DNA of 64,000 nt, from contig CAJNDT010006129.1 in assembly GCA_905221615.1 (NCBI GenBank), forward strand, positions 310,001 to 374,000. Reading direction: 5' to 3'. The stretch's first letter is position 1. Every line of letters begins with the position of its first letter. The notes beneath the pieces are model-generated. The model was not told the DNA's origin and ran no database searches. It saw nothing but the letters and a program-made list of their open reading frames with translations. This document shows positions 8,501 to 64,000 of the stretch, in pieces. The position numbers were made by a program, and so were the translations under genes. The DNA is from Symbiodinium sp. CCMP2592 (lineage: Eukaryota > Sar > Dinophyceae > Suessiales > Symbiodiniaceae).

Positions 8501-8892
8501 TGAATTCGGTGTCCACCGTGTTCGGTGTTTCGACGTGATGCTTCCCGACGAGACTCGGGGTACGAGCTATCCATGTGTGGATGTCGCTCATGGTACGCCT
8601 GCACTGCCCTGGGTAGGGCGTGTCCATCACGGCTACGGAAGTTTGGTCGTGTGCTCATTACGGCACAATGACCAAACAGGATCAGGAACGCTTGGTTAGC
8701 CCGAAAGGCTGATTGCTGTGAGGCTCGAGGCTGAAAGCGGCTGCGGATGATACAGAACATATAATTCTCATGAACATGTCCGATCTTAATGAAAACGCAG
8801 CTCGCAGACACACATTTTCTTTTAGACGGAAAACAGTCTAAATAGAAAATCCAGCACATGGTTGTGCTACCAGCAAACGAGACTACCACCAT
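5566..8892 (-). CDS. Copia-element ORF2: Tpt1/KptA-like region plus cysteine-rich zinc module (1108 aa)
   Basis: The frame is open for 1108 codons. Residues about 430-545 resemble the RNA 2'-phosphotransferase Tpt1/KptA (an ADP-ribosyltransferase fold). They read HATDLQALSSILRHGLVP, then VQFST, then RANKALLLVFDANNVVN, then WQSQVGMFATPDVVHARTLS, which follows the Tpt1 order of HGT...I...GL, an Arg-led strand, and S-x-N/G-V-hydrophobic-T followed by the closing strand. The family transfers a 2'-phosphate to NAD; whether this copy is catalytic cannot be judged. Residues about 560-830 are charged, Ser/Glu/Lys-rich and probably disordered. Near residue 960 a cluster reads CDLCNQPTGYFCYSCGTIVCADC, then CEC further on, probably a B-box or RING-like zinc fold. 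The ATG used here overlaps the ORF1 stop as ATGGTGGTAG, in the -1 frame. An internal Met at about residue 79 (MSTRPNFRSRDGH) is an alternative start. Confidence 0.6.
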   Translation of the reverse strand: MVVVSFAGSTTMCWIFYLDCFPSKRKCVSASCVFIKIGHVHENYMFCIIRSRFQPRASQQSAFRANQAFLILFGHCAVMSTRPNFRSRDGHALPRAVQAYHERHPHMDSSYPESRREASRRNTEHGGHRIHNREKNHEPQFIIMGHQQVFNPHPRDLAQLISRYGHASGARLTLNSRHGVRLYEGVLQGPWDNSPLVYWDNNVGSHARDPRQFCTMLAHHLQTGLPPEVEQCVSLDGSGEYDYSSSVPKLADVAGLSPEMCFHILSKTNRVGRWLAHSTRHLQNQRPDLFAGQHNYLLDMFKLADAELAQYTPQEIALGVLLNTKARFVVTMVYNKDGKAETTDAAVNIPPDANVLTMSKIFLSAVGGHGSRRTLPRAEEPDPEEERPRSHMTISDFMATGSNPVQSHAQRLSTNAPRPVGMEDFVRQNTPCYIMHATDLQALSSILRHGLVPSNLLAQVVTAPDFQALVNENSRSNMDTVQFSTLNLANPNPTMLRANKALLLVFDANNVVNEVTNLWQSQVGMFATPDVVHARTLSAVFAPSEPLWVSSQYDELKSIGPWWADHCSEQMPSATYESKKWCANYGREIESALRKVARRNLPPEPPKARSSHKKSFSLPKTEADTAPNLEQTASAGEVPPKTETTAKEIHPRSKLARQAEADKDPDSLMGQLWNSDGTRSATEVLKITTGHKPPEPVQDTSANVVPPKEESSGTETEPEEPDPNQDRDEESDDESASSEKSSKSSSSSELRVDVNPSHKTNSAPAASEEKKESPTEEITEKLKKVKLDQPKPEAEYVQSSDEEPQKPKSPKKEKEKFLVLFDPETESYYRVNRSKLNLEYEEPADEEDLVREHERISARLRENRKHRISKSSSNPAMQQEMKERIWVSRWNRKIRSPLMIKDSEAPDEEEWDRPRDSASSSSAPPTKERFVGVRRTAMSLNQRIRLMTRPDNPLCDLCNQPTGYFCYSCGTIVCADCRLTPQGKQQMCECILPIDCLETSKVSAGMISEERQVLYEAILTHEDVDLAVQKINMYCDHARNSFMRAHPGVDPCSFDDIRNNPPNTYTSSTEAPTLEEYKSINKGHINIKDSRTSHPALSSLTGYEDKWC

Positions 8893-11800
8893 ATTCCTTG
8901 GCAGTAAAATAATCGGTAAATCTCTGTTGAGATATCAATTCCAAGGAAGGCTACCGCTGTGGCGGCATTCTTGAGATTGTCTATGATCCACCGAACAGTG
9001 AAAGCTTTATGTTGAAGAAGTTCACGGAAGGGTGGATGAATGTCTGTTTCTGGTAAATTCCCTGTTTCCAGAGCCTTGATAAGCTCATCAGGTTGCGCCG
9101 AGTGCTTTGTTAATGCATCAGCTAGGCAGTACTTCGAGCTTACATGAGCTAGGTCATCTAAAGATCCAGAGTTGGATTCCTTACGAAGCATCTGAATGAG
9201 GTGGTGAGTTTCCTTCTGCTCTGGAAGGTGTGTCGTGCCTGCTGTTGTCACAAGATTGTTCGCATCTGTTCTGATATGTATGGGTACGGTCTCTGATGAG
9301 AGATCTGCCCAAAGTCCCTTGAGGAACAGGCAAGTACCAAAGCAACGCATCAGTGCGTTAAGCTCTGCCACTGTTGTGGACATTGTGGTTGTCGTAATCT
9401 TGTGAGACTCATAATCCACCAGGCTACCTCTCGAGGATGTTTCCTTAATAGAGGATTCAGAGAAATCGTTCTTCTTGGAAGAAGCAGCTGCTGCTGATTG
9501 TTTCATTCCCTTTAGCTTTGGATTTCGATCTTCAGCAAGGAAAATAACATGTGCTCTCTGAGATGATTTGTCATCATTGTTCCTGTAGGAAGCATCAGGG
9601 TAACCGAGGATTCTGAGATTTCCTTTCAGCGGCCAAAAACGCAGTTCTACTTCAGTAGACTTCAAAATCCTAACAAGCTTGTTCAATTCTCGAATATCAC
9701 CGATAGTAGGCTTGGCAGCCTTACTCGCACACCGACTGAAGCGATAACAGATGTGAGCTTGAGTCCGGCTTTGTAGCCAGTTGATCTGTCCTAAAACACT
9801 TCTGTAAGCAGTGTGCTGCTGTGGTGTGCATTGTTGCTCATTGTTGAGCTTCTTATCAAAAACAATTTCCTCTAGAGCTTCAACAGCTAGGTTCTGATTT
9901 ACTGAGATATGTGCTGGCACTGATGCTGTAGCATCCTTCCAGACTAATCTCTGTCCTACAAACATAATATCGTTCGTGTCTTCAGAACCGACTGCAAACT
10001 CCTTTTTGATCGATTCAATCACGGCCTTACGAAAGGTGTCATCACCGGCCATGCACAGGTCATCTACATGTAAACAGACTACTCCATGTACCTGTCTACC
10101 CTTGGCATTGTTGCCTGCTATGGGATCTAGGAGATAGTCAATCGCTGATTCCATGGTCTTTGGCTGAGACTTCTTGAGCTCAGCATCTGCTGTTGCAGAC
10201 TTCTTACCATACAAAACATATGTACAGCGATCCGCACGGGTTGGCACCAAGCCGTAAGACAGGAGTGCCTTATCAACGATGTTCCACCATCTTCGAGGTG
10301 CATCGTTAAGTCCATAAGCGGGTTTCTTCATCCTCGCTGCAATGTAGGGAGGATAACCTGCTTCAGGAGGAATCTGACAGATTATGTCTCTCGACTCATC
10401 ATAGGCTTCACCCTGCAGAAAAGCAGTCTTTAGGTCGATGTGTGTCAGATTCCACAGCTTGTTAGCTGCTAGTTGAATCGCCAAGCGGAAACCTGGGCGA
10501 CTCGCAGCAGGACTATCAGTTTGCTGTATGTCCTTTTGTCGATCCTGGAAACCTCTTAGGACCCATCGGGCCTTGCACTTAAGGAAGTTTCCGTCCTTAT
10601 CTCTTTTTAGAGTCAGGACCCATCGACCAGTGACATAATTTCGGATGTTTCCGAGTTTCCGTGTATCGACGAGCTCAAAGACATCATTGTCTAGCCAGCT
10701 CTGATATTCTGCTGCTTTCGCTTCATCAAACTGTTTCTTCATCTCACGCTTTTCTTTGGCGGTTGCCTCCTTCCGTTGTGCCTTCTGGGTCAGATTTGCT
10801 GAGTTCCTGGGGGAACTTAGGGATAAGGCCTTGTCCTCTTCCGTGAGAAGATCATACTCTTCACGGATGTCAGATCGGAACCTTTTGGTGGGTTTATACC
10901 GTGTTCGGTCTGACCTCACTCTTGATGTTACCTCTCTGATGTCTACGGGTCCGCCATGCATGTACCGAGGCATGGAGAAAGAACCTGTGTTACTGCACAG
11001 TTTCTGTTCTTCTGTGAGAAGGATCCAGTCCTTCTCATCTACGACCAGGTCACCTTCCTCATCAGAGTAATACCTTGTGTCTTCTGACTCGGCATCGCTC
11101 TCCGGTTCTGGTGAACCAGAGGTGTGAGGAGGAGCGGACGGTTGTCCGGGGTCGTCCGGGACCAGTTCTTCTTCAGAATCTTCTTCATCTTGTTGTAACG
11201 GAAGAATGGGTCCCTGTGGATGTGCCTTCGGTTTAGGTTTTGGTGTCGGCACCTGTGAAGGTGATTTCTGTTTGTGCGGCGAAACTTTCCTTTCCGATGA
11301 AGACCTTGGCGACACATCACCCCCCAGACGCCGAGGAGACGGAACGCGAGGAGGCGGATGCACGCGAGGCTTAGCCCGAGCAGGAGCCACGGGCTCATCG
11401 GAGGAAACGGCCGGTAGTCGCGGTGGAGGTATGGGAGGAGGAGGACGCGACGGCGGCGTGCCGGGAGGCATCGGCTGATCTGGTTCCGGCATAGAGACAT
11501 CGTCAGATGTGATCCGTGAGCGATTAGTGCTCATGGGTTCTGACGGGTCTGACGGCGAAACCTCTTCGTCCGACATGATAACATCCGGCGGTGTTCGCAC
11601 GGACGGTGAAGTCTTGCCGCCTGTCATCTGGAAGAGCACCCCCGAGAAGGTTGATGGGTGTACTTTATTCCAGGAAACCTGGTGCGGCAAGCAACACGTC
11701 ATAGTCGAATTGGGCTTCTTCTTGTTCCAGAAGACAAGAACGCCATCAGTTACACTGGTGAGTGCTTTGACTGTTCCAAATGTACCTCTGTATAGAGTAC

Positions 11801-14800
11801 ACTGTTCGAAACCAGACCCTGGTAAGAGTCTTGATCTAAGGCGAGTAATGTCTGACACCAAGGCATCAAGGGACGGTGATGGTTTGGAATGATGCAATGG
11901 TAATTCAGTTTTACTCGATAAGGAATTTACTCTAGCAACAAGTGATCTGATTTTCGGATCTTGCAGGAGTTTGGAATCCTTGAGAGGATTTGCTGTCAAA
12001 AGTGAATACTCTTGGTCAAGAAGTTCCGAAAGTCCCTGGAGGCATTCATCTCCAGAGTATCCTAGTATGTCTGTGACTAAAGAAAGATGAGATGCATATG
12101 TATCTCTCTTCAGGAATCTTGCCAAACACGAGGCAAAGGTCTCACAGAATTCATAAGGATACACTTGTGCGAGTTTCGTTTTAAGACCGTAGCCTTGAAT
12201 ACCCTTTTCGTCTCCTGGTGGAGATGTTGGAGATTTCGTTTTGGCAGAATGCCTCTGGAGAGGAGTTAGAACCTGCGGTGGCAGGTTGTGCATGAAAATC
12301 GAGGATTTCGATTCATAGTATCCTTTTGGATCTTTCATGCCATAGGCTTGTAGGTTACAGACCTCATAGCTGATCTTGCGGTTGGAAAACAGGCGTTTTG
12401 CTTCTGGTGAAGACCAGAGCCTGCTGTAGTATGGGTTCTCAAGAACAAAGTAACGTCCGAGCTTCATTTGGTGGTCTGCGACCGATTCACAGAATTTTAA
12501 AACAGAAAGTCTCTTGGCAGAGCCTTTCTTCCACTGTGAGTACCAGCTAGACCACTGAGAGTGATCGGGTGACATAACAATAATAGTAGGTTCTTGTTCC
12601 TTGATGATCCTAAGAAGATTGGAGCGACCTTGCGGTTGCTCAAGATCTAGACCACTACGCAAGTCGACTGGCTGACCTACTCGCAGACCTGACAGGGCAG
12701 CCTTGTGACTCATACGGGGAGATCCACCGTAGAGTTCTAGGAAGTCAATCTTCCCAGTGCTGGTGACCTGCCAGTGACACTCTTGATGCGGAACCGTTAG
12801 GTCTGTCGACTGCAGGGAAGCATCAAAGGTGACCATGCAACTTGCATGGTCAGAACCTTCTGACGTCAGAGTTTCCTCATCAGGCGCGAGAGGAATCTCC
12901 ACATCAGATGTTATGTCATAATTTTTCCTCAGTTTTGAGATATTAACGCGGACGATGCGTGTTCCAAGATCCACACCTACCATGGATCCTCCGAGTTCGG
13001 AGATCACCTTTCCTTTTAGCCAAGATCCATGTTTGGACCCAGTTGATCCAATCTTAGACTTATCCTCTGACCAGTAGAAAACCTTATCTCCCAAAGAGAA
13101 AGGTCCTTCGGTCATTGACAGTCTGGCCGCAAGATCTCTGCGCAGATCATCAGATTGGCGTGCCTCTTGGTAAGCCCTGTTGGCAAGCTCCTTAATGGCT
13201 CTCGCAGTGACTTCCGTATCAGTTGGATTACCTGTCAACTGATTGGGATCAGCGTTCTCTGGTGTTATAACATCTCGAGGACGCCTACCAAAGGCCATTT
13301 CTAAAGGAGTAACTCCTCCATAGGTAATCGAAGAGTTTCTTGCCAAACATGCTTGTCGAACGAGGTTGCCATACTTCATGGTGATTCCGTTATACTGCGG
13401 GTCACCATCCTTCAGGATCTGAAGTATGATCTTAATCTGATGCTTCAGCAATCTTACAGCAGCTTCGGCCCTGTTGGGCCATGGTGTTCCAGGTCCTGTT
13501 GCTACAGGCTTGATATTCTGCCGATTGTAATAAGCCTCCATTTTTGGAGTCATGAATGCTTGATCTCCAACTACAACCTTTGGGTTGATCTGAAATTTCT
13601 CAAAGTAGTCATTCATAATCGACATTGTAGTATGCTCTTCTTTATCCTGGACTACTTCGGAAGTCAACAGGTTTGTTGCTCCGTCATAGAGAATAAGAAA
13701 TATTAAGCGACTATTCTTGCCGGGAATTGGAAGCTCACCGTGATCTACGAAGGTGAGATCACCGAAAGTCTCTGATCTTAAACCGGAAATCTTCGCTCTT
13801 GAAGGAGCTCTCACGTGTTCCTGACAGGCTGAACACTTTTTGACCAGTTGGTCATATAGCTCATATATCTCCTTTGGGATCTGTAAGGCTTTCGTGCGTC
13901 GCTTGAACTGATCCGTACTCATATGACGGTGCTTAAGGTGAAGCTTATAGAGTTCTACAGGGTCCTTAAGCTTCTCATGAATCCTGCGAAGAGCAATGGG
14001 AAGAGATGGCGATGGTTCTGCGACAATCTCTTCACCTGTAGGTGAGTCTGTACCAGGAGCCGGGTATTCTCTTGACTCAAGTGGTCTTACCTCCGTCCCG
14101 TCATCAGCTCCTGGGACCATAGACTTCTCCTCAACAGGAGGTTTGACCGCATATTTGCGGGTTTTCTTCAGAAGGTTTTTAAGACCCTTTGGAGTCTTTG
14201 TCTTCGCAGGTGGAACCTCAAGTCTTTCTTCTTCTGGAGGTTCGTGCGGTGCAGATGATTCTGCAGGTTTGTCTCTAGAGCCTGATGATGGTTCCGATGG
14301 TTCGGAAGGCTCAGGAGCATCACCAGATGGTTCTGGTGGATCAGGTTTCTTGGCAGATGATTCTGCCGGATCAGATGGAAGAGGCTTCTTCTTTCCTGGA
14401 ATGCCCTTCGGTGGTGGATCAGCTGCTCCTTCAGGTGCTTTGTCGCAACCTTTGAGGAACGTATGAGGCTTTTTCTGTCCTGCGCAGGCTGGACAGCGAC
14501 CTTCCGGGATCTTAGTATAAGATCTTCTTTCTTCCTTTGGCTTCTTAGCTCCTAGAGCAGTCTCCGTCGCACTGAACGACGTACCTGACTTAGGGAGATA
14601 CTTCCTGGTGGAAGTGAAGCCTAGAAGGTCCAATACCAAATGGTTATTGGTACTAATCGGAAGGGGGGTTTTGTACAAACCAAAAGCTTCACACGTTGCT
14701 AGGTCAGCTGTGGGACTACACTCGAGGGTCATTCTTAGATTCCTCATCTGTTCGATGGAGAACAAAATGGGAACTCTCCCCTGATCCAGAACCTCGATGG

Positions 14801-16769
14801 TTGTATCTCTTCTTGGAGTTGTGTTGAACCATAGAGTTACACGCTCCTTGATAAGAGCTGTTTCACTATCTGCGAAAGAGAACTTCGTGTTCGAAGGTGA
14901 GAAAGTGAAATCAATCATGCCTGGGGCACGTTGCTTCACGGCCTTGATAAGCCTGTTCACCGCATAGCGGGAACCCATAGCCCTAGTACAACCTGAGTCA
15001 AGTATGACAAAGGTAGGGTTCTTATCAAGATTGATCCGCTCTGTGAGAGCAGATAGGACGGTGTGCTGCAACGGAAACACCGCTGTTGCAGTTTCAACAC
15101 CTTGCCCCTCGGATGGTTCAAAGACCTGGGGCACGTAACTCACTGATGAGTTGAACACGGGTTCTTGGTGCGCGCTCGGATCTGTGCCTCTACCTGATGA
15201 TCCTGCTTGATTTCTTCTCTTCTTTCTCCGTGTTTTTCTTCGTGAGGCTTGTGATGCATAGTATGTATAAGACGTTTGATCGTCATAAGCGGCATAATTC
15301 CAACTGGAGTCAGTATAATAACTGTCCTCATACCATGAATCCCAGCTCGGTGCGGTGGAACTTTCATAGGCCTGTGGAGATCCAGTTTGGTCTCCTTGTA
15401 AGGAGGCAGACTTAGCTGTATCCTTACCTTTGCCTTTTGCCTTTGCGCCTTTGAAGGAGCTTCCTTTATCTCCTTTGTCCTTTCCTTTTCCTTTGCCTTT
15501 TCCACCTTTTCCTTTTTCCTTTCCTTTACCTTTACCGAAATAGCTGGAATCAGTTGGATCATGTTCTGCCTGGTTGGCTCTCCCTTTTCCGCGGTATGAC
15601 CTAAAACGGCCACGTCCTTTTCGCTTGCCACCCTTTGCTCTTCCCGGTGATCCGGGACGCATTCTTGGTCTTCTTCCCTTTTTGAATCTCCTTGCAACGA
15701 AGGCCTCATGGTCATCAACTGTCCAGAAGACAGCTTCTTCATCCTCGGCGGCAAGAAAGCCTTCCTCAAGGGTGTCTTCGTCTTGGAGCCAGAATCCATC
15801 GACTCCATCGTATTCACCCTGATCGAGGATGAGGAAGTTTCGACCTCCGCGTTTACGGCGTTGGTCTCTCCTTCCATGGCGGTCCTTCTTGTGAGAAGAG
15901 TGCCGAATGTTGGGATCCTGCAGACCAGTTCTGGTCGTTGAGAACTGATCGAACATGGTCTGCCGTACCACAGGGTACGTGTAGGTCTCAATTCGGTGAC
16001 CTTGGTTGGTCAATGCTGTTACCAACCTCTCACGTTGCATCTCATTTAGGTCGGACTGCACTAGGAAGAGGAGAGCTAGGAGATTATCGTTCAGAGGAAA
16101 CGCTCTTCGATGATTGTCAAGGCGTTCCTTGTTCCATGTTTCGAAATAGCGTGCGGCATATGTGTCTCTCTCGGCTGCATCCTGCATGCGCAAGAAGGTT
16201 TGGTCTGCCTGCACAGCTTGCATGAAATCTGGATGGGCATCCTCCAGAGCTATCTCTGGTAAGAGATCCATCCATGAGTTTTTCACGCGCTGTAGCACGA
16301 TCTCAAACTTGGCAATCCAAGTCACAAAGTCTTGGTTGCCCTTCCATGCCTTGAATAGGCCGAGGAAACGCCACAGGAAAACGTACTGTTCTCCTTTCAC
16401 GAAAAATGGACGCATCTTCTTCTTGAAGTAATCTACTCCATCTGGGGCTGCAAGCCTTTCTCGGTTCAGTGATTCCTTTTGTACTGCGGCCAATCCGGAG
16501 AGCCTCGTCTTGAGAGACGGACCTCTTTTGGTGTCATCCAGCGTTGTTATGTCGCACCAGTCGTCAATCAACTGTTCATACTCAAACCACGAGGTGGTGC
16601 CATCATAGGCAGGCGCGATCTTGGGCGTTATGCCTAATGATGCAAGCATGCGGTCAGATGTTGCATATGACTGTGCGACATAAGTGGCTGGACCTTGGGA
16701 GGTCTCTTCGTTCTCATATCCCCCGGAGGATTGGGAACTGTCGTCGGCTTCGCTATGCGAGCTCGACAT
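8883..16769 (-). CDS. Copia-like Gag-Pol polyprotein with inserted methyltransferase-like domain (2628 aa)
   Basis: Domains in order, residues approximate. Gag-like helical region 1-300. Lys/Gly-rich basic stretch 380-470. Aspartic protease with LDSGCT, catalytic Asp at 591. A CPAC...C cluster near 757. Integrase zinc HHCC (HLKHRHMS...CSAC) 940-980. Integrase core with Asp in FVDHG near 1006, Asp in VVGDQAF near 1066 and Glu in NRAEAA near 1102. A domain at 1340-1545 resembles a C5 cytosine methyltransferase (see findings). Acidic/proline-rich linker 1600-1900. RT from about 2020, with HVDD near 2233. RNase H with GYPDAS, AELNAL, TDANN and CLADAL, 2390-2560. The order integrase-RT-RNase H is diagnostic of Ty1/copia. 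It is fully open and starts at the first ATG after the primer-site-like sequence. It ends within the first codons of ORF2. Confidence 0.92.
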   Translation of the reverse strand: MSSSHSEADDSSQSSGGYENEETSQGPATYVAQSYATSDRMLASLGITPKIAPAYDGTTSWFEYEQLIDDWCDITTLDDTKRGPSLKTRLSGLAAVQKESLNRERLAAPDGVDYFKKKMRPFFVKGEQYVFLWRFLGLFKAWKGNQDFVTWIAKFEIVLQRVKNSWMDLLPEIALEDAHPDFMQAVQADQTFLRMQDAAERDTYAARYFETWNKERLDNHRRAFPLNDNLLALLFLVQSDLNEMQRERLVTALTNQGHRIETYTYPVVRQTMFDQFSTTRTGLQDPNIRHSSHKKDRHGRRDQRRKRGGRNFLILDQGEYDGVDGFWLQDEDTLEEGFLAAEDEEAVFWTVDDHEAFVARRFKKGRRPRMRPGSPGRAKGGKRKGRGRFRSYRGKGRANQAEHDPTDSSYFGKGKGKEKGKGGKGKGKGKDKGDKGSSFKGAKAKGKGKDTAKSASLQGDQTGSPQAYESSTAPSWDSWYEDSYYTDSSWNYAAYDDQTSYTYYASQASRRKTRRKKRRNQAGSSGRGTDPSAHQEPVFNSSVSYVPQVFEPSEGQGVETATAVFPLQHTVLSALTERINLDKNPTFVILDSGCTRAMGSRYAVNRLIKAVKQRAPGMIDFTFSPSNTKFSFADSETALIKERVTLWFNTTPRRDTTIEVLDQGRVPILFSIEQMRNLRMTLECSPTADLATCEAFGLYKTPLPISTNNHLVLDLLGFTSTRKYLPKSGTSFSATETALGAKKPKEERRSYTKIPEGRCPACAGQKKPHTFLKGCDKAPEGAADPPPKGIPGKKKPLPSDPAESSAKKPDPPEPSGDAPEPSEPSEPSSGSRDKPAESSAPHEPPEEERLEVPPAKTKTPKGLKNLLKKTRKYAVKPPVEEKSMVPGADDGTEVRPLESREYPAPGTDSPTGEEIVAEPSPSLPIALRRIHEKLKDPVELYKLHLKHRHMSTDQFKRRTKALQIPKEIYELYDQLVKKCSACQEHVRAPSRAKISGLRSETFGDLTFVDHGELPIPGKNSRLIFLILYDGATNLLTSEVVQDKEEHTTMSIMNDYFEKFQINPKVVVGDQAFMTPKMEAYYNRQNIKPVATGPGTPWPNRAEAAVRLLKHQIKIILQILKDGDPQYNGITMKYGNLVRQACLARNSSITYGGVTPLEMAFGRRPRDVITPENADPNQLTGNPTDTEVTARAIKELANRAYQEARQSDDLRRDLAARLSMTEGPFSLGDKVFYWSEDKSKIGSTGSKHGSWLKGKVISELGGSMVGVDLGTRIVRVNISKLRKNYDITSDVEIPLAPDEETLTSEGSDHASCMVTFDASLQSTDLTVPHQECHWQVTSTGKIDFLELYGGSPRMSHKAALSGLRVGQPVDLRSGLDLEQPQGRSNLLRIIKEQEPTIIVMSPDHSQWSSWYSQWKKGSAKRLSVLKFCESVADHQMKLGRYFVLENPYYSRLWSSPEAKRLFSNRKISYEVCNLQAYGMKDPKGYYESKSSIFMHNLPPQVLTPLQRHSAKTKSPTSPPGDEKGIQGYGLKTKLAQVYPYEFCETFASCLARFLKRDTYASHLSLVTDILGYSGDECLQGLSELLDQEYSLLTANPLKDSKLLQDPKIRSLVARVNSLSSKTELPLHHSKPSPSLDALVSDITRLRSRLLPGSGFEQCTLYRGTFGTVKALTSVTDGVLVFWNKKKPNSTMTCCLPHQVSWNKVHPSTFSGVLFQMTGGKTSPSVRTPPDVIMSDEEVSPSDPSEPMSTNRSRITSDDVSMPEPDQPMPPGTPPSRPPPPIPPPRLPAVSSDEPVAPARAKPRVHPPPRVPSPRRLGGDVSPRSSSERKVSPHKQKSPSQVPTPKPKPKAHPQGPILPLQQDEEDSEEELVPDDPGQPSAPPHTSGSPEPESDAESEDTRYYSDEEGDLVVDEKDWILLTEEQKLCSNTGSFSMPRYMHGGPVDIREVTSRVRSDRTRYKPTKRFRSDIREEYDLLTEEDKALSLSSPRNSANLTQKAQRKEATAKEKREMKKQFDEAKAAEYQSWLDNDVFELVDTRKLGNIRNYVTGRWVLTLKRDKDGNFLKCKARWVLRGFQDRQKDIQQTDSPAASRPGFRLAIQLAANKLWNLTHIDLKTAFLQGEAYDESRDIICQIPPEAGYPPYIAARMKKPAYGLNDAPRRWWNIVDKALLSYGLVPTRADRCTYVLYGKKSATADAELKKSQPKTMESAIDYLLDPIAGNNAKGRQVHGVVCLHVDDLCMAGDDTFRKAVIESIKKEFAVGSEDTNDIMFVGQRLVWKDATASVPAHISVNQNLAVEALEEIVFDKKLNNEQQCTPQQHTAYRSVLGQINWLQSRTQAHICYRFSRCASKAAKPTIGDIRELNKLVRILKSTEVELRFWPLKGNLRILGYPDASYRNNDDKSSQRAHVIFLAEDRNPKLKGMKQSAAAASSKKNDFSESSIKETSSRGSLVDYESHKITTTTMSTTVAELNALMRCFGTCLFLKGLWADLSSETVPIHIRTDANNLVTTAGTTHLPEQKETHHLIQMLRKESNSGSLDDLAHVSSKYCLADALTKHSAQPDELIKALETGNLPETDIHPPFRELLQHKAFTVRWIIDNLKNAATAVAFLGIDISTEIYRLFYCQGIWW
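12150..12765 (-). other. Methyltransferase-like domain inside the copia polyprotein
   Basis: This segment (ORF1 residues about 1335-1540) lies between integrase and RT, where copia elements normally have only linker. It opens with KIDFLELYGGSPRMSHKAAL, like motif I of C5 DNA methyltransferases (FxGxG). Next come an acidic strand (QPVDLRSGLDL), then IIVMSPDHSQWSSW at the place of motif IV (PPCxxxS), then FVLENPYYSRLW at the place of motif VI (ENV). The catalytic cysteine of PPC is replaced (PDH), so a classical cytosine methyl transfer looks unlikely. Methyltransferases captured by dinoflagellate retrotransposons have been described before; this looks like a divergent relative. Confidence 0.55.
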
Positions 16770-55609: not shown

Positions 55610-56340
55610 CTTCTTCCTTCTACTTCTTCCTCTACTGCAACTACTTTTGCTATTGCTATTGCCATTGCAATTGCTATTACCATTACCATTACTGTCACTG
55701 TTTCTATTACTATGACTATGACTATTACTGTTACTGTTACTGTTACTGTTACTCTTACTCTTACTCTTACTCTTGCTCTTACTCTTACTCTTACTCTTAC
55801 TCTTACTCTTACTATTACTATTACTATTACTATTACTATTACTATTACTATTACTATCACTATTACTATTACTATTACTATTACTATTCCTATTCCTATT
55901 ACTATTACTATTACTATTACTGTTACTATTACTATTACTATTACTATTACTATTACTATTACTATTACTATTACGATTACCATTACCATTACCATTACCA
56001 TTACCATTACCATTACTATTACTATTACTATTACTATTACTATTACTATTACTATTACTATTACTATTACTATTACTATTGCTATTGCTATTGCTATGAC
56101 TATGACTATGACTATTACTGTCACTATTGCTATTGCTATTACTATTACTATTCCTATTCCCATTCCCATTCCCATTACCCTTACCCTTACCCTTACCATT
56201 ACCATTACCGTTACCATTACTATTACTTTAACTATTGCTACTATCACTACCACTACTACTATTACTAGTACTAGTGCTCTTACTCGTACTCTCGTAATAA
56301 TGTTACACTCACTCGATTTCGGTTACTCCTACAGTAACTA
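55610..56340. repeat. (ACTATT)n hexanucleotide satellite with variant blocks
   Basis: About 600 bases of ACTATT with blocks of ACTGTT, ACTCTT, ACCATT, GCTATT and CCCATT are present. The Thr/Ile, Val/Ile and Leu frames are repeat translations. Confidence 0.97.
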
Positions 56341-58424
56341 ACTATTAATCTTGCTCTTTCTCTGACTCTCACTGTTACTCTTACTTTTGCTCTGTCTCTT
56401 GCTATGAACACTGCTTTTCCCTTTATTAGTACAACTGCTGTTGCAAATACGATCTCTTTTGAGACTACCATTACGAGTACTATCATGATTTCAATTCTGA
56501 TTACATTTACGATTGCGATTACGAAAACGGTTACGATCATTAGTAATCACTAGTACTACTTCTAGTGAGCGTCCAAGTACTAGTACTAGCACCCAACACA
56601 AGTACTAGTACAAGCTTTAGCACTGGTACCAGCACCAGTACCAGCACCGGAACTGGTACTGGTCTACCGAGTCTACTACTCCCATAATCTACTCCGACAC
56701 AAGAGCTTACGCCGACCCTTACTTGCCCTTGCCCTTACCGGTTACCCTTGCGTTGACAACTACGATTACTATGATCATGACTATGCCCATGACATATCCT
56801 AATCGTCATCCTTTTAATACTACTACGATTTCTATCCTTGCCCTTTACTTTGAATACCGCTACTACTGATACTCCTCACTCCTCTTCAAACTTTCAATTG
56901 TGATTCCTACCACAGTCTGCATAGCATTACAGCAACTGCCTGCCTGCCGCTCCTCTTCCAGAAAGAAGGAGAGGGTGCCACGTGGGCACGGCCAGACGTT
57001 CCATGGCTCAGGATTTTCGCTTTTGGGAGCCCAAAGTTGGCGTCGAATCGCTGACCATGTTTGTTCACTATTGCTGGTCAAGGACTGATGCGGTGTGGTG
57101 TGTTTGGGTGAAGGTGAGGGCTGAACTCAAGTCCGGAGAAGCCAACTTCCAACTGAAAGATGCAGCCTAAACACTGACCATGGAAACAGAACCATGCTTC
57201 CCATGGTAATTTTGATACACCCCGAAACGTAAGCTTTCTGTTGAAACTTGTTGAACTAACTACCCAAGTCTGGATGCCTATCATGCAGGCTCTGTCAACT
57301 CTACGCTTGGAGGGAAAGGTAGAACGAGCAGGCTGTTGATTGCACATTCCACGTGCTTCGCTTTAGTGAATGTCCTGCAAAAGCAACATCAAAGCGCTGA
57401 GAATTCAAATAGCCTCGAAACAAATCATCTCACAACTTCTGCCTCACCTTCAAGAAGAGACCTCACCTCACACATTGCATCCAAACTTGTCACGACTGGA
57501 CATTTACGAAGCGCTTTGCAAACGTTCGAGGGCCATCAAAAATCAGATCAGGTCTGCGAAAGGAAGGGCGTTCGAGCCGATTGACCGCATCAACAAGCCG
57601 AAGCAATCAAACAATGGTTCCACATGCTATTTCCAGCTGAACGAACATTGTTGTTGCAAACATGAGCTTCGCTCTCCGGCTGTTGATGCAACGAACGACA
57701 GACTTATACAGACTGTTTGCCACGATGCTTCTCGCTCTGTGGCACACACCTGAAAATTGTCGTGTTGTTGCCACTACACAGAACAACAACCTTGGATTTT
57801 CCACAGCTGCGGTACCCTTGTTCCAAACATCATGACCACGCAGCTCCTCGAACCGCGCTATGCGGCTATGACTGCTATCACGAGTTGAAAGCTCTTTGCA
57901 CTTCCAATCACGCCGCCGTTTTCCAAGTTTTCCACACTGACAACTGACAACTGGCGGCAGCATTGGGTGGATGGAAACAGCTTGTGATGCTGTAGCACAT
58001 GTTGCTGTGGATCTGCGCAAAATTTTTTCAAGGGTCTAGAATCCGCTGGGAAAAGTTGACATAACCAACCCGATGTGATGGTAAATTCGTATGCTTCGCT
58101 TGGATGATCGCGGAAGCTACTTCTGGAGAATCAAACTACGACGTCCCTCGTCACTTGTGAGGCACCAGCACTACGGGGTCCCACTGCCTTGTACAAATCT
58201 TGTCCAGCGCACACCGACAGCAAAGCCCCTCGGCCTTCCACTGTTTAGCCTCAAAAGTACAAGTGCTGCAGGACTCGAAAGCAAATTGCCCTGAAATCAA
58301 AAAATGCTACAACGTAACAAAAACATAACGTCTCCCTGCAGAACTACTCAAACAGGGGGTGCGGTATTCTTAAACCCAACATCTTGTCTGCCAAACTGCT
58401 GTTGAAACTAGAACGATTAGAACT
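56341..58424. other. Intergenic, no supported gene
   Basis: The first 300 bases are still TAC/ACT/AGTACTAG-rich. The rest has only short frames without family features. Confidence 0.4.
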
Positions 58425-58614
58425 TTGTAGGAACCAGCAAAGCGACTGGCAAAGAAACATATCAGGAAAACATAAAAATCGAGAATCAAATATCTTTCCA
58501 ATATAAATCCAACGAGGCTTCGGACTGAGGACTCAACATTTTTCCGGATGTCCAGATCGCGCCGTAACAGCGAGCCGAGACCGGGTCCCCATTCGGGGAC
58601 CGGCCTCCACCCAT
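58425..58614 (-). repeat. DIRS-like element: terminal direct repeat, outer copy (B2)
   Basis: About 190 bases match 58918-59109 almost exactly (CATATC here against CGTATC there is one of very few differences). It contains a hairpin, GGTCCCC/GGGGACC around ATTC. It ends at CTTTGTAGGAACC on the plus strand. Confidence 0.88.
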
Positions 58615-58917
58615 AGCTCAAACTAACATCCCACCGGCGCAAGGTAAAATTCTAGGGCGGGATGGGTGGGACTAAAACTTCTAAGCTCCCTCCTCCGGAG
58701 CCTCTATTTCACGGATATAATCGAATCAGTCATCAGAGCACTAAAGCAGTGCAAGTCAACATGAGAAAGCATGTGAAAGACCTACAGCAATCACATGAAA
58801 GAAACGTGCGGAAAATCGGAAAAGAAATCGTATTGATAAAATCAATTAAAACTTTCTTTTGGGGCCCACCCTCCTCCCCTTTGCATCCTACAAACCCCTT
58901 TGGGCAAGCCCAAGAAG
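58615..58917 (-). repeat. DIRS-like element: unit between the direct repeats (A2)
   Basis: Some 300 bases lie between the two repeat copies. In split-direct-repeat elements (A1-ORFs-B1-A2-B2) this unit should be repeated as A1 at the 5' end, which would lie beyond the right edge of the window. Confidence 0.5.
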
Positions 58918-59109
58918 CTTTGTAGGAACCAGCAAAGCGACTGGCAAAGAAACGTATCAGGAAAACATAAAAATCGAGAATCAAATATCTTTCCAATATA
59001 AATCCAACGAGGCTTCGGACTGAGGACTCAACATTTTTCCGGATGTCCAGATCGCGCCGTAACAGCGAGCCGAGACCGGGTCCCCATTCGGGGACCGGCC
59101 TCCACCCAC
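58918..59109 (-). repeat. DIRS-like element: terminal direct repeat, inner copy (B1)
   Basis: It begins 17 bases after the pol stop codon and is the partner of 58425-58614. It shares the GGTCCCC/GGGGACC hairpin. Confidence 0.88.
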
Positions 59110-59125
59110 CAACGCGAGGATCGCT

Positions 59126-62100
59126 TTACCACTTCGTCTTGGTGGCCAACTTCTGCTTCTTTGTCAAAGGAGCTGATGGGGCACTTCCTTCTCCCCCTTT
59201 TCGCCATTCGAGCATCTCAGAATGAAAGCTTGCCAAATCAAGAAGAAGCTTGCACGGCACATCAGAAAACTTCGCATCAATCCGAAGAGCTAAATCGAAG
59301 GCGCTGAACCGTTCATTCGTCAAGTCATCTGCCTCAGTATTGAGCTCACGCGGTCGCCAGTTCAAGTTCATATGGCCCCCGCAGCGGAACAAATCGTACT
59401 CCAGCTGCATATACACATACGTCAATGGGAACTTCGTGGTTCCCTGGCGGCGCATGACCAGCTCATTCGCCAGGTTGTCGGTCCCCGCAGAGACCGTGAA
59501 ACTCTGCCCAGTCCCATCCAGCCATCCGAACAAGTGCAGCCCCAGCCACGTGGCCAGAAGCTCGGCAACTGTGCTCATTCCTTTCGCCGTCCCTTGTGCA
59601 TTGAACACGAATGGATAATCAGCGGCAGTGACCCGGACAGAGAACCAACGGCACTTCTTTGGCTCAAAGCTGTGCAGAGTTTCCCATCCACCCAGTACGA
59701 AAAAATCATCCTCTGCTTTCGCGTCCGTGCGAAATGCTTCGCGAAGCATCAAAGGTGGCGACTTACAGCAGACAAGATAATGCTTCTCTTGCAGCAAGGT
59801 CAAGATGTAGCGAAGGACCACCATCACCATACGAGGTACCAAGGCCACAGTTCCTGGAGTGATGGCGGCTTTCCAGCGATGAAGCGGTCCCATGAACGGT
59901 CGGAGCCAGTACAGAACTTGCCCAGCATAGACCAATCGCCCCACAAACTCGGTGAAGCGCCGATGCTCAATCATCCCTCGGCCCCTCTGCAGATCCGTGA
60001 TGAATTCGATGAGCCAGTTCGCCCGACGCTCCGACAGTCCCACTTTGAACCGGAAGTAATCAAAATAGAAACCAACATAATCCAAGCAAACTCCCCCACG
60101 AAACTTAGACCACTTAAAAGGAGTGCCAACCATAAGCCAGTAGAGGAGCACCACCCAAAGGTCGTGGTACTTCTGCTCTCCACCCGCCATGATCTGCAAG
60201 TCATCTGCGAAGAGCATCTGGAAAAGCGAGGCCTGCAGTGCAATGCGAAGAGCTCCACGGCCTATCAGCCCTGCCAACCTGGCGAAGTGATAAGCAGCGC
60301 AAGCCACACCGAACGTTCCCACCCGGTTAATCCAGATCGGGCCGTCTGGCCTGGCCCGACAACCAAGGTAACCATGATCCTCGGGTGCATGCTTGTATCT
60401 CCGATGTGCTTTTGCAATGTCCGCAGCGATTCCTATCAGGAGTCGATGACCATCTTCTTGCTGGATTTCCATGGCCCGCGCGGCATTCGAAGGTGTAGGG
60501 AATTCAAGCTTATCAGAGATCTTAATCATGTTGTTCAGCTTGACGGAGTGAGTGCCGTCAAAGAGGGCTCGCACTGAGCCATCGTCCTTTATGATAGCTC
60601 CGAGACTTGCCACCCGCAGCGTCTCTCCAAACCGCCGTCGCGCCTCCTTCTCAGACAAGGGGTACATGAATCCAAGGGCCTCCTCCTCCTCGAACTGCTT
60701 CTCCAGCTGCTCGGGCACGGCCTTGGCCGAAGAGTAGTTCTCATTGATTGCCTGAAACTCAGACTCGTCATACTCTCGCCATTTCCCCTTCGGCCTGAAG
60801 ACCGCCACTACGCGAGGAAAGGGCCGGTCCACTCCCAGTCTCCGCCCACGAGCATAGTTGTCCTCTGCACGGGTGAGAACCTCCCAGTCCTCATCTCCCA
60901 TAGCCCGACAAGTCTGCGAGAGCGCCTCCAAGAAGAAGGGTTGCCCAGGCTCCTGGTGAGCGGCCGCTGAAGGATCCTCCAGCAGAGAGAACCAAGACTT
61001 ACGAAGACGATCCATGGCCTGAGCAGAAAAAGGAGCTTCCTCGTACTTGCCCAGGGCCAACATGAAATATGCCCGCTGGGGATCCCCGATCTCAGTCCTG
61101 ATGAAATCATCCAGAAGACTCCGAAGAGCATTCACGAACTCGTCAGCTTCCTTGGTGAGCCCCCTGCCCCGGGCGGTCGGGCGCCAGCGACCCGGACTGT
61201 TAAGTCCGCAACCATCAACGAAGGAATGGACCTTGCCTCGCCATTGCACGGTGATAGGATCGCCGAAGTTGTCCTTGCGAGCCTGGACCAGATGACCATG
61301 GAAGGTGTCACCCTCCTCTCCAGCTCCCCGCTCGAGAAGACGGACTGATGGTGTAAGCCCGCCCGAAACCGCTTCATCCGTCTGCGACACACCCTGCAGT
61401 CCTGAGATCCTTTTCCAGGTGTTCCTCAAGGTACGGCTAGCTTTCGCAGGCTCTCGGATCGAGAACCCAATGATCACGGTCCGCACGCCCTTCCAAGACA
61501 TCGTAGCATGGAGTCGACGAGGATCCAGAAGTTGAGGACCCGTGGCCACCGGAAGAATTTTGCCCCAGCGCTGCTCGCCCTCGTACTCCATGGGCTCGAG
61601 TCCGCCATCCACTTCTTGCCAGACCCCTCCGCCCTTAAATCGGGAAGCTGGAACCAGCAGGTTCCAAGTGTTGGCACCATTTTGGCTGTCGCAATGTGGA
61701 AGCACTTGGCGGTTCCTAGACACCACCACCGAAGTAAAAGCGTAACCTGGAAATGCAGCGCGAAGAATTCCGCAAAGAAGTGCCGTAACCCAGGGGTGGC
61801 TGGACACATGCGTGCGAAGCCCGATGACTCCGCCATGTTGAAAGAAACCACTCATGAAAGTCTTTGAGGTCAGATCCCCGGCTGTAGCGCGGACCTCGAG
61901 GTCCGACGGCAGCAGCCCACAGAGCTTTTCGAAGTCTCCCACAGTGACCCTGCCCTTCTTGAGGAGTCGAGCCGCGAAACTTTCCGCATCCGAAGTTTCC
62001 CCTGCTGGGGGCCAAGAGCCCGCCGGCAGCTCCAGTCGCAAGGACGAGAGCTCGAAGTCGTCTTTCGGTCCCTCCCCGTCCGAGGAGTCATCTGAATCCC

Positions 62101-63016
62101 AGGTGGCCTGCTCCAACGGCCTGCGCCCAAAAGTGGATGCGTCCCCAGCCCCATCAACGCGACAGAGACGCAGCATGCTTTTGGAAAGCCAGGCGCACAT
62201 CAGCGAAGGATAAGCTGCCGAGGCGGTGGCCCAAGTACCTGCGGGGTCTTTGCCCAGTAGAGAACGATCATGACGATGACCACAGGAGGGCGGAAGAGGC
62301 CCGCGATATCGTCCATCTGCCGCAAGCTCAGGCGGCCCCGTAAATAGGGCAGCTTCGCACCAGTCCAGACGGCTCCATAAAAGGCGAGTGGGCTTACTCG
62401 AAGGTGCACCCCACTGACACTGAAAGAAGGCAGCCGTTTGCACCCCATCCAGAAGAAGAAGCTGCTTGAATTCATCGAAGTCCCAGACCGAAGCAGGAAT
62501 GAAGTCGTTAACCGCGCCCAGTTGTTCCGGGTGCTCAAAGATGAATGGCATGCAAAGCTCAAGGCGAATGAAACAAATTTCGAAGCACTTCAGCACCCCG
62601 AAATTAGCCTCCTCGACCGTAGAACGATCTTTATCCGACAGCCAAGGAAACCCGAAAACATACTGTAAAGAGCGAAGCGGCCTGGGCCCACCGGCGGTGC
62701 GCCAGTGAGCTTTAGCTCTGCTGAAGGTGCTGACCCCGGGGACCAGCAAGATCACGGAGGCTTCCTGTATCAACAGTTGCAATTCCGCACTGAAACCTGA
62801 TCCAGTGTCGCTCTTAAAGGAGGTTCCCATAAGATCAACTTCCAGACCATACAATCGAATTCCAAGTGATTTGGCTTCTCGCTCCAAACATTCCCGGACA
62901 TTGGAATGGCGACGACCGCCTGAGTAAAAGTGCAGAAAACGAAAGACCCTGTCCGATTTGACCGGTTCCAGATCCCAGCACTCCCAAGCAGATGAAACGG
63001 CCACATCCGTTGCTAG
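59126..63016 (-). CDS. DIRS-like Pol: methyltransferase-like, 2OG-Fe(II) oxygenase-like, RT, RNase H
   Basis: The frame is open for about 1296 codons from just after an in-frame TGA; there is no ATG at its head (63004 is GTG). Residues from 63004. About 20-160 resemble a C5 methyltransferase: FLHFYSGGRRHSN, GLEVDLMG, ILLVPGVSTFSRA (no PPC cysteine), FIFEHPEQLG. About 420-515 resemble a 2-oxoglutarate/Fe(II) dioxygenase: LPHCDSQNGANTWN (His437, Asp439), FKGGGVW, RRLHATMSWKGVRTVIIGFS (His499, Arg508). RT follows, with ADIAKAHRRY near 860 and LFADDLQIM near 930, then RNase H with GTDNLAN near 1172 and ELNTEADDLTN near 1222. The RT/RNase H style and 3' split repeats fit tyrosine-recombinase retroelements, but no recombinase is visible in the window; it may lie further upstream or be absent. 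Confidence 0.8.
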   Translation of the reverse strand, partial: LATDVAVSSAWECWDLEPVKSDRVFRFLHFYSGGRRHSNVRECLEREAKSLGIRLYGLEVDLMGTSFKSDTGSGFSAELQLLIQEASVILLVPGVSTFSRAKAHWRTAGGPRPLRSLQYVFGFPWLSDKDRSTVEEANFGVLKCFEICFIRLELCMPFIFEHPEQLGAVNDFIPASVWDFDEFKQLLLLDGVQTAAFFQCQWGAPSSKPTRLLWSRLDWCEAALFTGPPELAADGRYRGPLPPSCGHRHDRSLLGKDPAGTWATASAAYPSLMCAWLSKSMLRLCRVDGAGDASTFGRRPLEQATWDSDDSSDGEGPKDDFELSSLRLELPAGSWPPAGETSDAESFAARLLKKGRVTVGDFEKLCGLLPSDLEVRATAGDLTSKTFMSGFFQHGGVIGLRTHVSSHPWVTALLCGILRAAFPGYAFTSVVVSRNRQVLPHCDSQNGANTWNLLVPASRFKGGGVWQEVDGGLEPMEYEGEQRWGKILPVATGPQLLDPRRLHATMSWKGVRTVIIGFSIREPAKASRTLRNTWKRISGLQGVSQTDEAVSGGLTPSVRLLERGAGEEGDTFHGHLVQARKDNFGDPITVQWRGKVHSFVDGCGLNSPGRWRPTARGRGLTKEADEFVNALRSLLDDFIRTEIGDPQRAYFMLALGKYEEAPFSAQAMDRLRKSWFSLLEDPSAAAHQEPGQPFFLEALSQTCRAMGDEDWEVLTRAEDNYARGRRLGVDRPFPRVVAVFRPKGKWREYDESEFQAINENYSSAKAVPEQLEKQFEEEEALGFMYPLSEKEARRRFGETLRVASLGAIIKDDGSVRALFDGTHSVKLNNMIKISDKLEFPTPSNAARAMEIQQEDGHRLLIGIAADIAKAHRRYKHAPEDHGYLGCRARPDGPIWINRVGTFGVACAAYHFARLAGLIGRGALRIALQASLFQMLFADDLQIMAGGEQKYHDLWVVLLYWLMVGTPFKWSKFRGGVCLDYVGFYFDYFRFKVGLSERRANWLIEFITDLQRGRGMIEHRRFTEFVGRLVYAGQVLYWLRPFMGPLHRWKAAITPGTVALVPRMVMVVLRYILTLLQEKHYLVCCKSPPLMLREAFRTDAKAEDDFFVLGGWETLHSFEPKKCRWFSVRVTAADYPFVFNAQGTAKGMSTVAELLATWLGLHLFGWLDGTGQSFTVSAGTDNLANELVMRRQGTTKFPLTYVYMQLEYDLFRCGGHMNLNWRPRELNTEADDLTNERFSAFDLALRIDAKFSDVPCKLLLDLASFHSEMLEWRKGGEGSAPSAPLTKKQKLATKTKW

Positions 63017-64000
63017 TCAGTTTGGCTGATTGTCCTCAGCACCACCCTTGTATTTCTGCAGTTTGCAGCTTTTGCGAGAGTGTGGCTTCAGGCATAATTG
63101 GCAGACGTGCACTCGACCGCAATCGCCTTTGCAAGTGCCGTTGTTGTATGCATAGCAGATCTGTCGCCCATCCGGCGTGCTGCTAAACACGAACCCCCTA
63201 GCCGAAGGATAGCCGATGCGGAGGCTGCTTTTGCCCCCCTTTCCGCGACCTTTGCCACCCTTACCCTTTGCACTTGCTTCTGCACCTGGTACATGATCCT
63301 GAAGCCGGAGCCACTTCGCTGGCGGAGGCGGTGCCGTGGAAGAAGATCCTCGACTGGCCAGCTCCAGCGCCAACGGTCCCACAAAGTGGTCTCTTTCAGT
63401 GCTGCATCCGTCCTGACTTCCGCCAGTGTTGTGGAGATATCTCGATTGTCCCTGCAAGCACGCTTGTAAGCTTCTTTGCGGAGTCGATGCTCGAAGTCCA
63501 ACAAGAGAGTCCAAGAAGGATTGACCGATTGAGTGCCCGAGGCGCCGTCAGGCCGAGACATTTGCAGAAGAAAGATCTTATCTCCCAACACATAATCGAC
63601 GTGCTTTGTAAAGTCGTGCACCCGGAGGTCCACAAACCAGGGCTTGGTGCGGAACCTAGCAGCCAGCATCAGAAAAAGCATGACATTCAAGACGTAGCCG
63701 CGCTGACGGAGCTCCTTCGAAGTAGCTGGAAGCTTGGCCTTCTTGCGCTCCTTCACAAGCCGTAACCGGCCCGATGAGTCCACTGAGGATTGGAACTGAG
63801 CATTGACCTCATCGGAGACGCTGGTCACCTCATCAAGTACCGCAGCACGGAGTTTTCCGCCTCAACTTCCTCCAATTTCAATGCAAGATACGTGGAGCTA
63901 GGTTCGTCCTTCTCCTTCAAGGCGCCAACAACCCTCTCAAGTGCGTGACGCATACCCATCCGATCGTTCGATGGAAGCGGCTTTGGAAGACCAAGAACAT
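63017..64000 (-). pseudogene. DIRS-like Gag, frame-broken, continuing off the window
   Basis: Three frames together make one gag. 64000 to about 63835 reads MRHALERVVGALKEKDEP, then LKLEEVEAENSVLRYL. 63828 to about 63390 reads VDYVLGDKIFLLQMSRP, then LLLDFEHRLRKEAYKRA and EVRTDAALKE. 63390-63017 reads HFVGPLALELASRG, then CYAYNNGTCKGDCGRVH (a C-x7-C-x3-C-x3-H zinc finger) and CQLCLKPHSRKSC (a zinc knuckle). The breaks at about 63832 and 63388 are single small indels, either decay or sequencing error. The last frame ends in TGA (63019-63017), and pol continues in the same frame. Confidence 0.72.

What the first reader, a model, noticed from the sequence alone, without database searches (positions are those of the whole stretch)
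59126..63016. Retroelement Pol that joins a methyltransferase-like domain with a 2OG-Fe(II) dioxygenase-like domain, RT and RNase H
One intact frame carries, in order, a C5-methyltransferase-like region (FLHFYSGG..., VPGVSTFS, FEHPEQLG), a dioxygenase-like core with H437-x-D439, H499 and R508 in the expected order, an RT with LFADD, and RNase H. TET/JBP and related dioxygenases oxidise the methyl group of thymine or 5-methylcytosine, and dinoflagellate DNA is rich in 5-hydroxymethyluracil. A mobile element carrying both kinds of base-modification fold could read, mark or unmask its own DNA. The motifs are seen in the sequence; the function is inference.
Basis: partly seen in the sequence, partly recalled or inferred. 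Interest (0 to 1): 0.9.

Follow-up and report, generated by a model that had tools for sequence, protein, structure and literature searches.

The report
Retroelement carrying a TET-like DNA oxygenase
A dinoflagellate jumping gene carries, fused to its reverse transcriptase, a probably inactive relative of a DNA methyltransferase and an apparently intact relative of the enzymes that oxidise methyl groups on DNA bases, so it may chemically mark or unmask DNA.

The parts
59126..63016 (-). Pol open frame, 1296 aa, stop to stop
62162..62944 (-). C5-methyltransferase-like domain, residues 25-285
   Evidence: model pLDDT 85.3, all 50 listed second-look rows are C5-MTases
62732..62740 (-). motif IV site, residues 93-95, PGV in place of PPC (nucleophile lost)
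   Evidence: Cys in 31 of 34 aligned rows, Val in window and P0003; P0002 also PGV
61400..61999 (-). TET/JBP-like 2OG-Fe(II) dioxygenase domain, residues 340-539
61679..61696 (-). H441-x-D443-x-x-N446: two iron ligands and the TET-type base-reading position
   Evidence: 18 of 19 rows; D+3 role in TETs from passages
61508..61510 (-). H503, third iron ligand
   Evidence: 19 of 19 rows
61481..61483 (-). R512, expected 2OG-binding arginine
   Evidence: 19 of 19 rows; role inferred from order and spacing
59987..60856 (-). reverse transcriptase, residues about 721-1010, with LFADD at 935-939
   Evidence: RVT_1 in 17 of 34 members of A1, best E 5.2e-6; weak in the window itself, E 0.26
59297..59986 (-). 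RNase H, residues about 1011-1240
   Evidence: alignment profiles find RNase HI chains in the PDB, best E 0.005
63013..63019 (-). TGA-CTA-G at the gag-pol junction, same frame on both sides
   Evidence: UGA CUA G named the high-readthrough motif in PMC12233894
63020..64000 (-). gag-like region (5' part lies outside the window), broken by two frame changes near 63858 and 63390-63418 in this copy
   Evidence: tblastn with relatives
58913..59108 (-). direct repeat copy next to the Pol stop (B1 if the element is DIRS-like)
58614..58912 (-). 299-nt stretch between the repeats (A2 if the element is DIRS-like)
   Evidence: matching A1 would lie outside the window
58419..58613 (-). second direct repeat copy, 99% identical, likely element end

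Best explanation
This is the 3' part of a dinoflagellate (Symbiodinium-like) DIRS-like retrotransposon whose Pol carries a TET/JBP-like dioxygenase between a C5-methyltransferase-like domain and RT/RNase H. Shown: the domain order, the folds as predicted, the conserved iron and 2OG ligand positions, an Asn at the TET2 base-reading position, and loss of the methyltransferase nucleophile in this subfamily. Inferred: Pol is made by readthrough of a leaky gag stop codon and travels with the element's RNA and cDNA. The dioxygenase oxidises the 5-methyl group of 5-methylcytosine or thymine in element DNA, during or after reverse transcription, so that copies carry 5hmC or 5hmU and escape or alter methylation-based silencing. 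In this subfamily the inactive methyltransferase domain would serve as a binding scaffold (as inactive DNMT3L does for its partners), and the oxidase would use methyl groups put there by others. In sister lineages with an intact PPC motif the same chain could first methylate cytosine and then oxidise it.
Confidence: 0.62

Rival explanations
1. The dioxygenase is AlkB-like: it removes N-alkyl groups (such as m1A, m3C or m6A) from the element's RNA or cDNA, as AlkB domains of some plant RNA viruses are thought to do (recalled).
Against: No AlkB-type Pfam family is listed for any of 19 members (E<=1) or 9 trimmed members (E<=5), while Tet_JBP is. The AlkB signature RxNxTxR (recalled) is absent: the window has R512-T-V-I-I-G-F. 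The D+3 residue is Asn, where AlkB has Glu136 (recalled numbering; the mutant name E136H is).
Confidence: 0.2
2. The domain oxidises a protein (a Gag, host chromatin or capsid side chain), like prolyl or asparaginyl hydroxylases, and has no role in base modification.
For: PHD2 and bacterial P4H are among Foldseek hits at E 6e-4 to 2e-3; several viral hits are named aspartyl/asparaginyl or proline hydroxylases.
Against: The 50 rows listed in the second look are mostly nucleic-acid oxygenases, led by TET and AlkB; the domain sits beside a C5-MTase fold and RT.
Confidence: 0.1
3. The non-RT domains are passengers or relics without catalytic function; in this copy both are inactive, and the dioxygenase is a structural remnant.
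For: The MTase nucleophile is lost in P0001-P0003, P0090, P0094 and P0063, and 72 of 94 proteins show no dioxygenase, so neither is needed in all elements.
Against: Iron and 2OG positions are kept in at least 18 of 19 rows while the rest diverges, and the domain is better kept than its linkers.
Confidence: 0.08

Closest known systems
SymbioDIRS-Dnmt3 and SymbioLINE-Dnmt retrotransposons (de Mendoza et al. 2018, PMC5890265; abstract and sections 6, 7, 15 read)
   Same: Dinoflagellate retrotransposons with a C5-MTase domain; in SymbioDIRS-Dnmt3 it shares the Pol ORF with RT, and the element ends in a B-A-B repeat order like the one seen here.
   Different: Their DNMTs were found with PF00145 and keep the key residues; here the MTase-like domain is too diverged for that profile and lacks Cys in this subfamily. 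No dioxygenase is described in the sections read. No tyrosine recombinase is seen here.
TET/JBP-bearing fungal DNA transposons (Kojima 2025, PMC12730594; abstract, passages and section 4.2 read)
   Same: Mobile elements with a TET/JBP-type dioxygenase, read by the author as a counter to methylation-based silencing.
   Different: DNA transposons and Helitrons of fungi; [quoted passage not shown] Here it is fused into a retrotransposon Pol with a C5-MTase fold.
Phage C5-MTase plus TET pathways (as told in PMC12730594 section 4.2)
   Same: A cytosine methyltransferase and a TET/JBP dioxygenase encoded by one mobile genome.
   Different: Separate phage proteins, with glycosyltransferases; here one polyprotein with RT, and no glycosyltransferase seen.
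NgTET1, TET2, CMD1, CcTet
   Same: Predicted fold, HxD...H...R order, Asn/Asp at D+3.
   Different: Sequence identity only 14-15% in the structural alignment to NgTET1; no His at R+8; fused to RT.

Membership tests
TET/JBP dioxygenases | double-stranded beta-helix 2OG oxygenase fold with HxD, H and R in order | tested here: met
   predicted model and structural matches; ligand positions 18-19 of 19 rows
TET/JBP dioxygenases | Asn or Asp three residues after the HxD Asp, contacting N4 of 5mC | tested here: met
   N446 in 18 of 19 rows; role from passages
TET/JBP dioxygenases | His contacting N3 of the base (H1904 in TET2, H297 in NgTET1) | tested here: inconclusive
   by recalled spacing the place is R+8, where the column holds T, I, V or P; CMD1 is not listed with such a His in the passage seen
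TET/JBP dioxygenases | Pfam Tet_JBP at its curated cut-off | tested here: not met
   13.3 bits against 34.9 in P0093; no match in the window
TET/JBP dioxygenases | oxidises 5mC or thymine in DNA | not testable with these tools
   needs an enzyme assay
AlkB family | RxNxTxR signature (recalled) | tested here: not met
   R512-T-V-I-I-G-F in the window
AlkB family | AlkB-type fold | tested here: inconclusive
C5-cytosine methyltransferases | class I MTase fold of the C5 type | tested here: met
   all 50 listed rows, predicted model
C5-cytosine methyltransferases | motif IV Pro-Cys nucleophile | tested here: not met
   V95 in the window; Cys in 31 of 34 rows of the family
C5-cytosine methyltransferases | motif VI Glu | tested here: met
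   E161 in 34 of 34 rows; equivalence to ENV is inferred
C5-cytosine methyltransferases | Pfam DNA_methylase match | tested here: not met
   none for the window; 7 of 34 members weakly, best E 0.034
DIRS-like retrotransposons | RT followed by RNase H | tested here: met
   DIRS-type affinity of the RT is recalled, not tested
DIRS-like retrotransposons | tyrosine recombinase gene | tested here: inconclusive
   no Pfam match in Pol, two gag frames or five long relatives; most of the 5' side is outside the window
DIRS-like retrotransposons | split repeats A - coding - B-A-B | tested here: inconclusive
   B-x-B seen at the 3' end; the 5' repeat is outside the window
SymbioDIRS-Dnmt3 | DNMT of the Dnmt3 clade | not tested
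   their sequences were not at hand

The most novel reading that the evidence does not exclude
Dinoflagellate retrotransposons carry a one-chain write-and-oxidise machine (C5-methyltransferase plus TET-like dioxygenase plus RT) that hypermodifies their own cDNA, a retroelement counterpart of phage MTase-TET systems; and these element-borne oxygenases are a source of the 5hmU or 5hmC found on repeats in dinoflagellate genomes. In the window's subfamily only the oxidising half would remain active.
Probability: 0.22. Interest if true: 0.95.

Novelty: new variant of a known kind. Interest (0 to 1): 0.82.

Why it matters
Methyltransferases in retrotransposons (2018) and TET enzymes in DNA transposons were known separately; [quoted passage not shown] Dinoflagellates replace a substantial part of their thymine with 5hmU (PMC6680887 passage), in Breviolum enriched over most repeats, and the passages seen name no enzyme that makes it (TET and JBP do not occur as words in PMC11071213). 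This family offers concrete enzymes with which to test whether mobile elements make or use oxidised bases.

Tried and rejected
Single-sequence Pfam and PDB searches of the whole Pol found nothing useful. The dioxygenase profile A3 (9 of the 19 rows of A2) found no relative among PDB sequences (one chance hit, E 1.3), so sequence support for TET rests on Tet_JBP at E 0.0029-0.049. Foldseek against the PDB gave no hit at E<=0.001 for the MTase-like model; after its first twelve hits esterases and other folds mix in.

Chance fusion or a private artefact was rejected because the order recurs in separate RT clades. Tree caveats: quick method, 85 of 94 proteins, long branches; the label needs 5 changes, or 4 on the 77 rows left after eight rows truncated before the dioxygenase were taken out. 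One gain with several losses, several gains, or exchange between elements all fit. P0083, one of the four places, is a long branch.

A link between Cys loss and the dioxygenase (5 of 13 dioxygenase-bearing proteins with a readable motif IV against 1 of 56 others; 25 of 94 unreadable) is not claimed: by eye it is about three loss events, two of them in dioxygenase lineages.

CpG observed/expected of the element (0.86) is not below the rest of the window (0.77), so self-methylation leaves no depletion here; this says little either way. The Copia-type ORF at 8883-16769 was tested for the same domains and has no significant match. No DNA of relatives was found in viral contigs or genome contigs (9 pattern matches, none confirmed), so Ka/Ks could not be computed.

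Paper searches: those asking for all terms found 8, 2, 0, 0, 8 and 2 papers; one search listed 10 of 11 and one search listed 12 of 169, none of the 12 with the term 2OG-Fe. Preprints and most subscription papers are not held.

Full report
What is there. The finding lies on the minus strand, 59126-63016, a single frame of 1296 aa open from stop to stop. The best-named homologs are predicted proteins of Symbiodinium sp. CCMP2592, one of them (P0002) 98% and 100% identical over its two aligned parts; others are from Polarella and other Symbiodinium. A whole-protein search gave 83 proteins at E<=1e-3 among 8000 scored candidates, a capped number. Two searches with dioxygenase regions returned 3 and 11 proteins, 10 of them new.

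Layout of the family. Many homologs match residues 25-285 and about 560-1296 and skip the segment between. Profiles built from aligned pieces were run against all 94 proteins, the window's included: 82 carry the MTase-like domain and 22 the dioxygenase, some only in part (P0084, P0091, P0092, P0083). Of the 84 from the first search, 12 carry the dioxygenase. The set is not a random sample, since two searches were aimed at the dioxygenase. In P0046, P0088 and P0089 the MTase-like domain is not found; they begin in or shortly before the dioxygenase.

Ligands. H441, D443 and N446 are in 18 of 19 aligned rows; the exception, P0083, has the stretch deleted. H503, T505, W508, G510 and R512 are in 19 of 19, while the commonest residue averages 51% per column. 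The motif by itself is not evidence: a loose version arises in 1178 of 2000 shuffles, a strict one in 35 of 2000. Passages on TET structures say that Asn1387 of TET2, Asp234 of NgTET1 and Asp350 of CMD1 bond to N4 of 5mC, and that mutating H345 or D347 of CMD1 abolishes iron-dependent activity (PMC7854593, PMC11040006). N446 sits at the same D+3 place and is Asn, as in TET2. The CMD1 authors reasoned that Asn there might bond to O4 of thymine, but their D350N mutant had very little activity on 5mC and none on T. So the residue fits 5mC and does not exclude thymine.

Selection. Against P0003 the dioxygenase keeps 136 of 181 residues, more than the linkers on either side (22 of 49; 18 of 37) and less than RT (266 of 290). 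Against P0006 the numbers are 72 of 181, 9 of 49, 6 of 37 and 207 of 290. This speaks for purifying selection on the domain, but no DNA of relatives was available for Ka/Ks.

Distribution. On a quick tree of 85 RT regions the dioxygenase label (16 rows) needs 5 changes, or 4 on the 77 rows left when rows truncated before the domain are taken out; 0 of 500 shuffles were as low. It sits in the window's clade, with P0030/P0034, in an eight-member clade (P0040, P0046, P0085, P0087, P0088, P0090, P0092, P0093) and with the distant long branch P0083. The order MTase-dioxygenase-RT-RNase H is therefore old or repeatedly assembled, not a local accident.

Element. Upstream lies a gag-like region that matches 9 of 10 relatives queried; in this copy it changes frame twice. 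Its last frame is the frame of Pol, and the two are separated by one stop in the context AAC-TGA-CTA-G; UGA CUA G is called the high-readthrough motif in PMC12233894 (passages). Readthrough is inferred. Downstream, 17 nt after the Pol stop, two direct repeats of about 195 nt, 99% identical, flank a 299-nt stretch. This resembles the B-A-B end of the A-coding-B-A-B order described for SymbioDIRS-Dnmt3 (PMC5890265 section 6), but the 5' end and any tyrosine recombinase lie outside the window, so DIRS membership is open.

Compared with what is known. De Mendoza et al. described hundreds of Symbiodinium retrotransposon DNMTs found with PF00145 (PMC5890265 abstract and sections 6, 7, 15). The domain here is too diverged for that profile, and those authors note that Symbiodinium DIRS RTs align poorly with Pfam, so this family may have been passed over. 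[quoted passage not shown]). The paper searches made here found no report of the combination; the longest list showed 12 of 169 papers, and subscription papers and preprints are mostly not held. In Breviolum 5hmU is enriched over most repeats, and its authors suggest that it may modulate repetitive elements (PMC11071213 passages).

Mechanism. Shown: architecture, predicted folds, conserved ligand positions, loss of the MTase nucleophile in this subfamily. Inferred: readthrough Gag-Pol, travel with the element RNA, and oxidation of 5mC or T on cDNA or inserted copies. An inactive MTase as a partner or scaffold has a precedent in DNMT3L, called enzymatically inactive in the abstract of PMC11740433 (search listing). 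The AlkB-like rival cannot be excluded by fold. The bold reading, a one-chain methylate-then-oxidise system in lineages with intact PPC, is given as the novel case.

Noticed in passing
8883-16769, minus strand: A 2628-aa open frame with a Copia-type reverse transcriptase (RVT_2, E 1e-16); it shows neither the dioxygenase nor the MTase-like domain.
   Followed up: partly
5566-8892, minus strand: A 1108-aa open frame with a weak B-box zinc finger match (E 5.6e-5, just under the curated cut-off), beside the Copia-type frame.
   Followed up: no
59294-60577, plus strand: A 427-codon stretch is open on the strand opposite the RT part of Pol; probably a by-product of codon usage.
   Followed up: no
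relatives P0001-P0003, P0090, P0094, P0063: Loss of the MTase nucleophile is seen in 5 of 13 dioxygenase-bearing proteins with a readable motif against 1 of 56 others; few independent events, but worth testing on whole genomes.
   Followed up: partly
P0079, residues 1413-1545: This relative of Pol is continued by a peptidase M16 domain (E 2.2e-6), perhaps a gene-model fusion.
   Followed up: no
55642-56284: A 643-base array of TACTAT units, about 107 copies, a few kb from the element.
   Followed up: no
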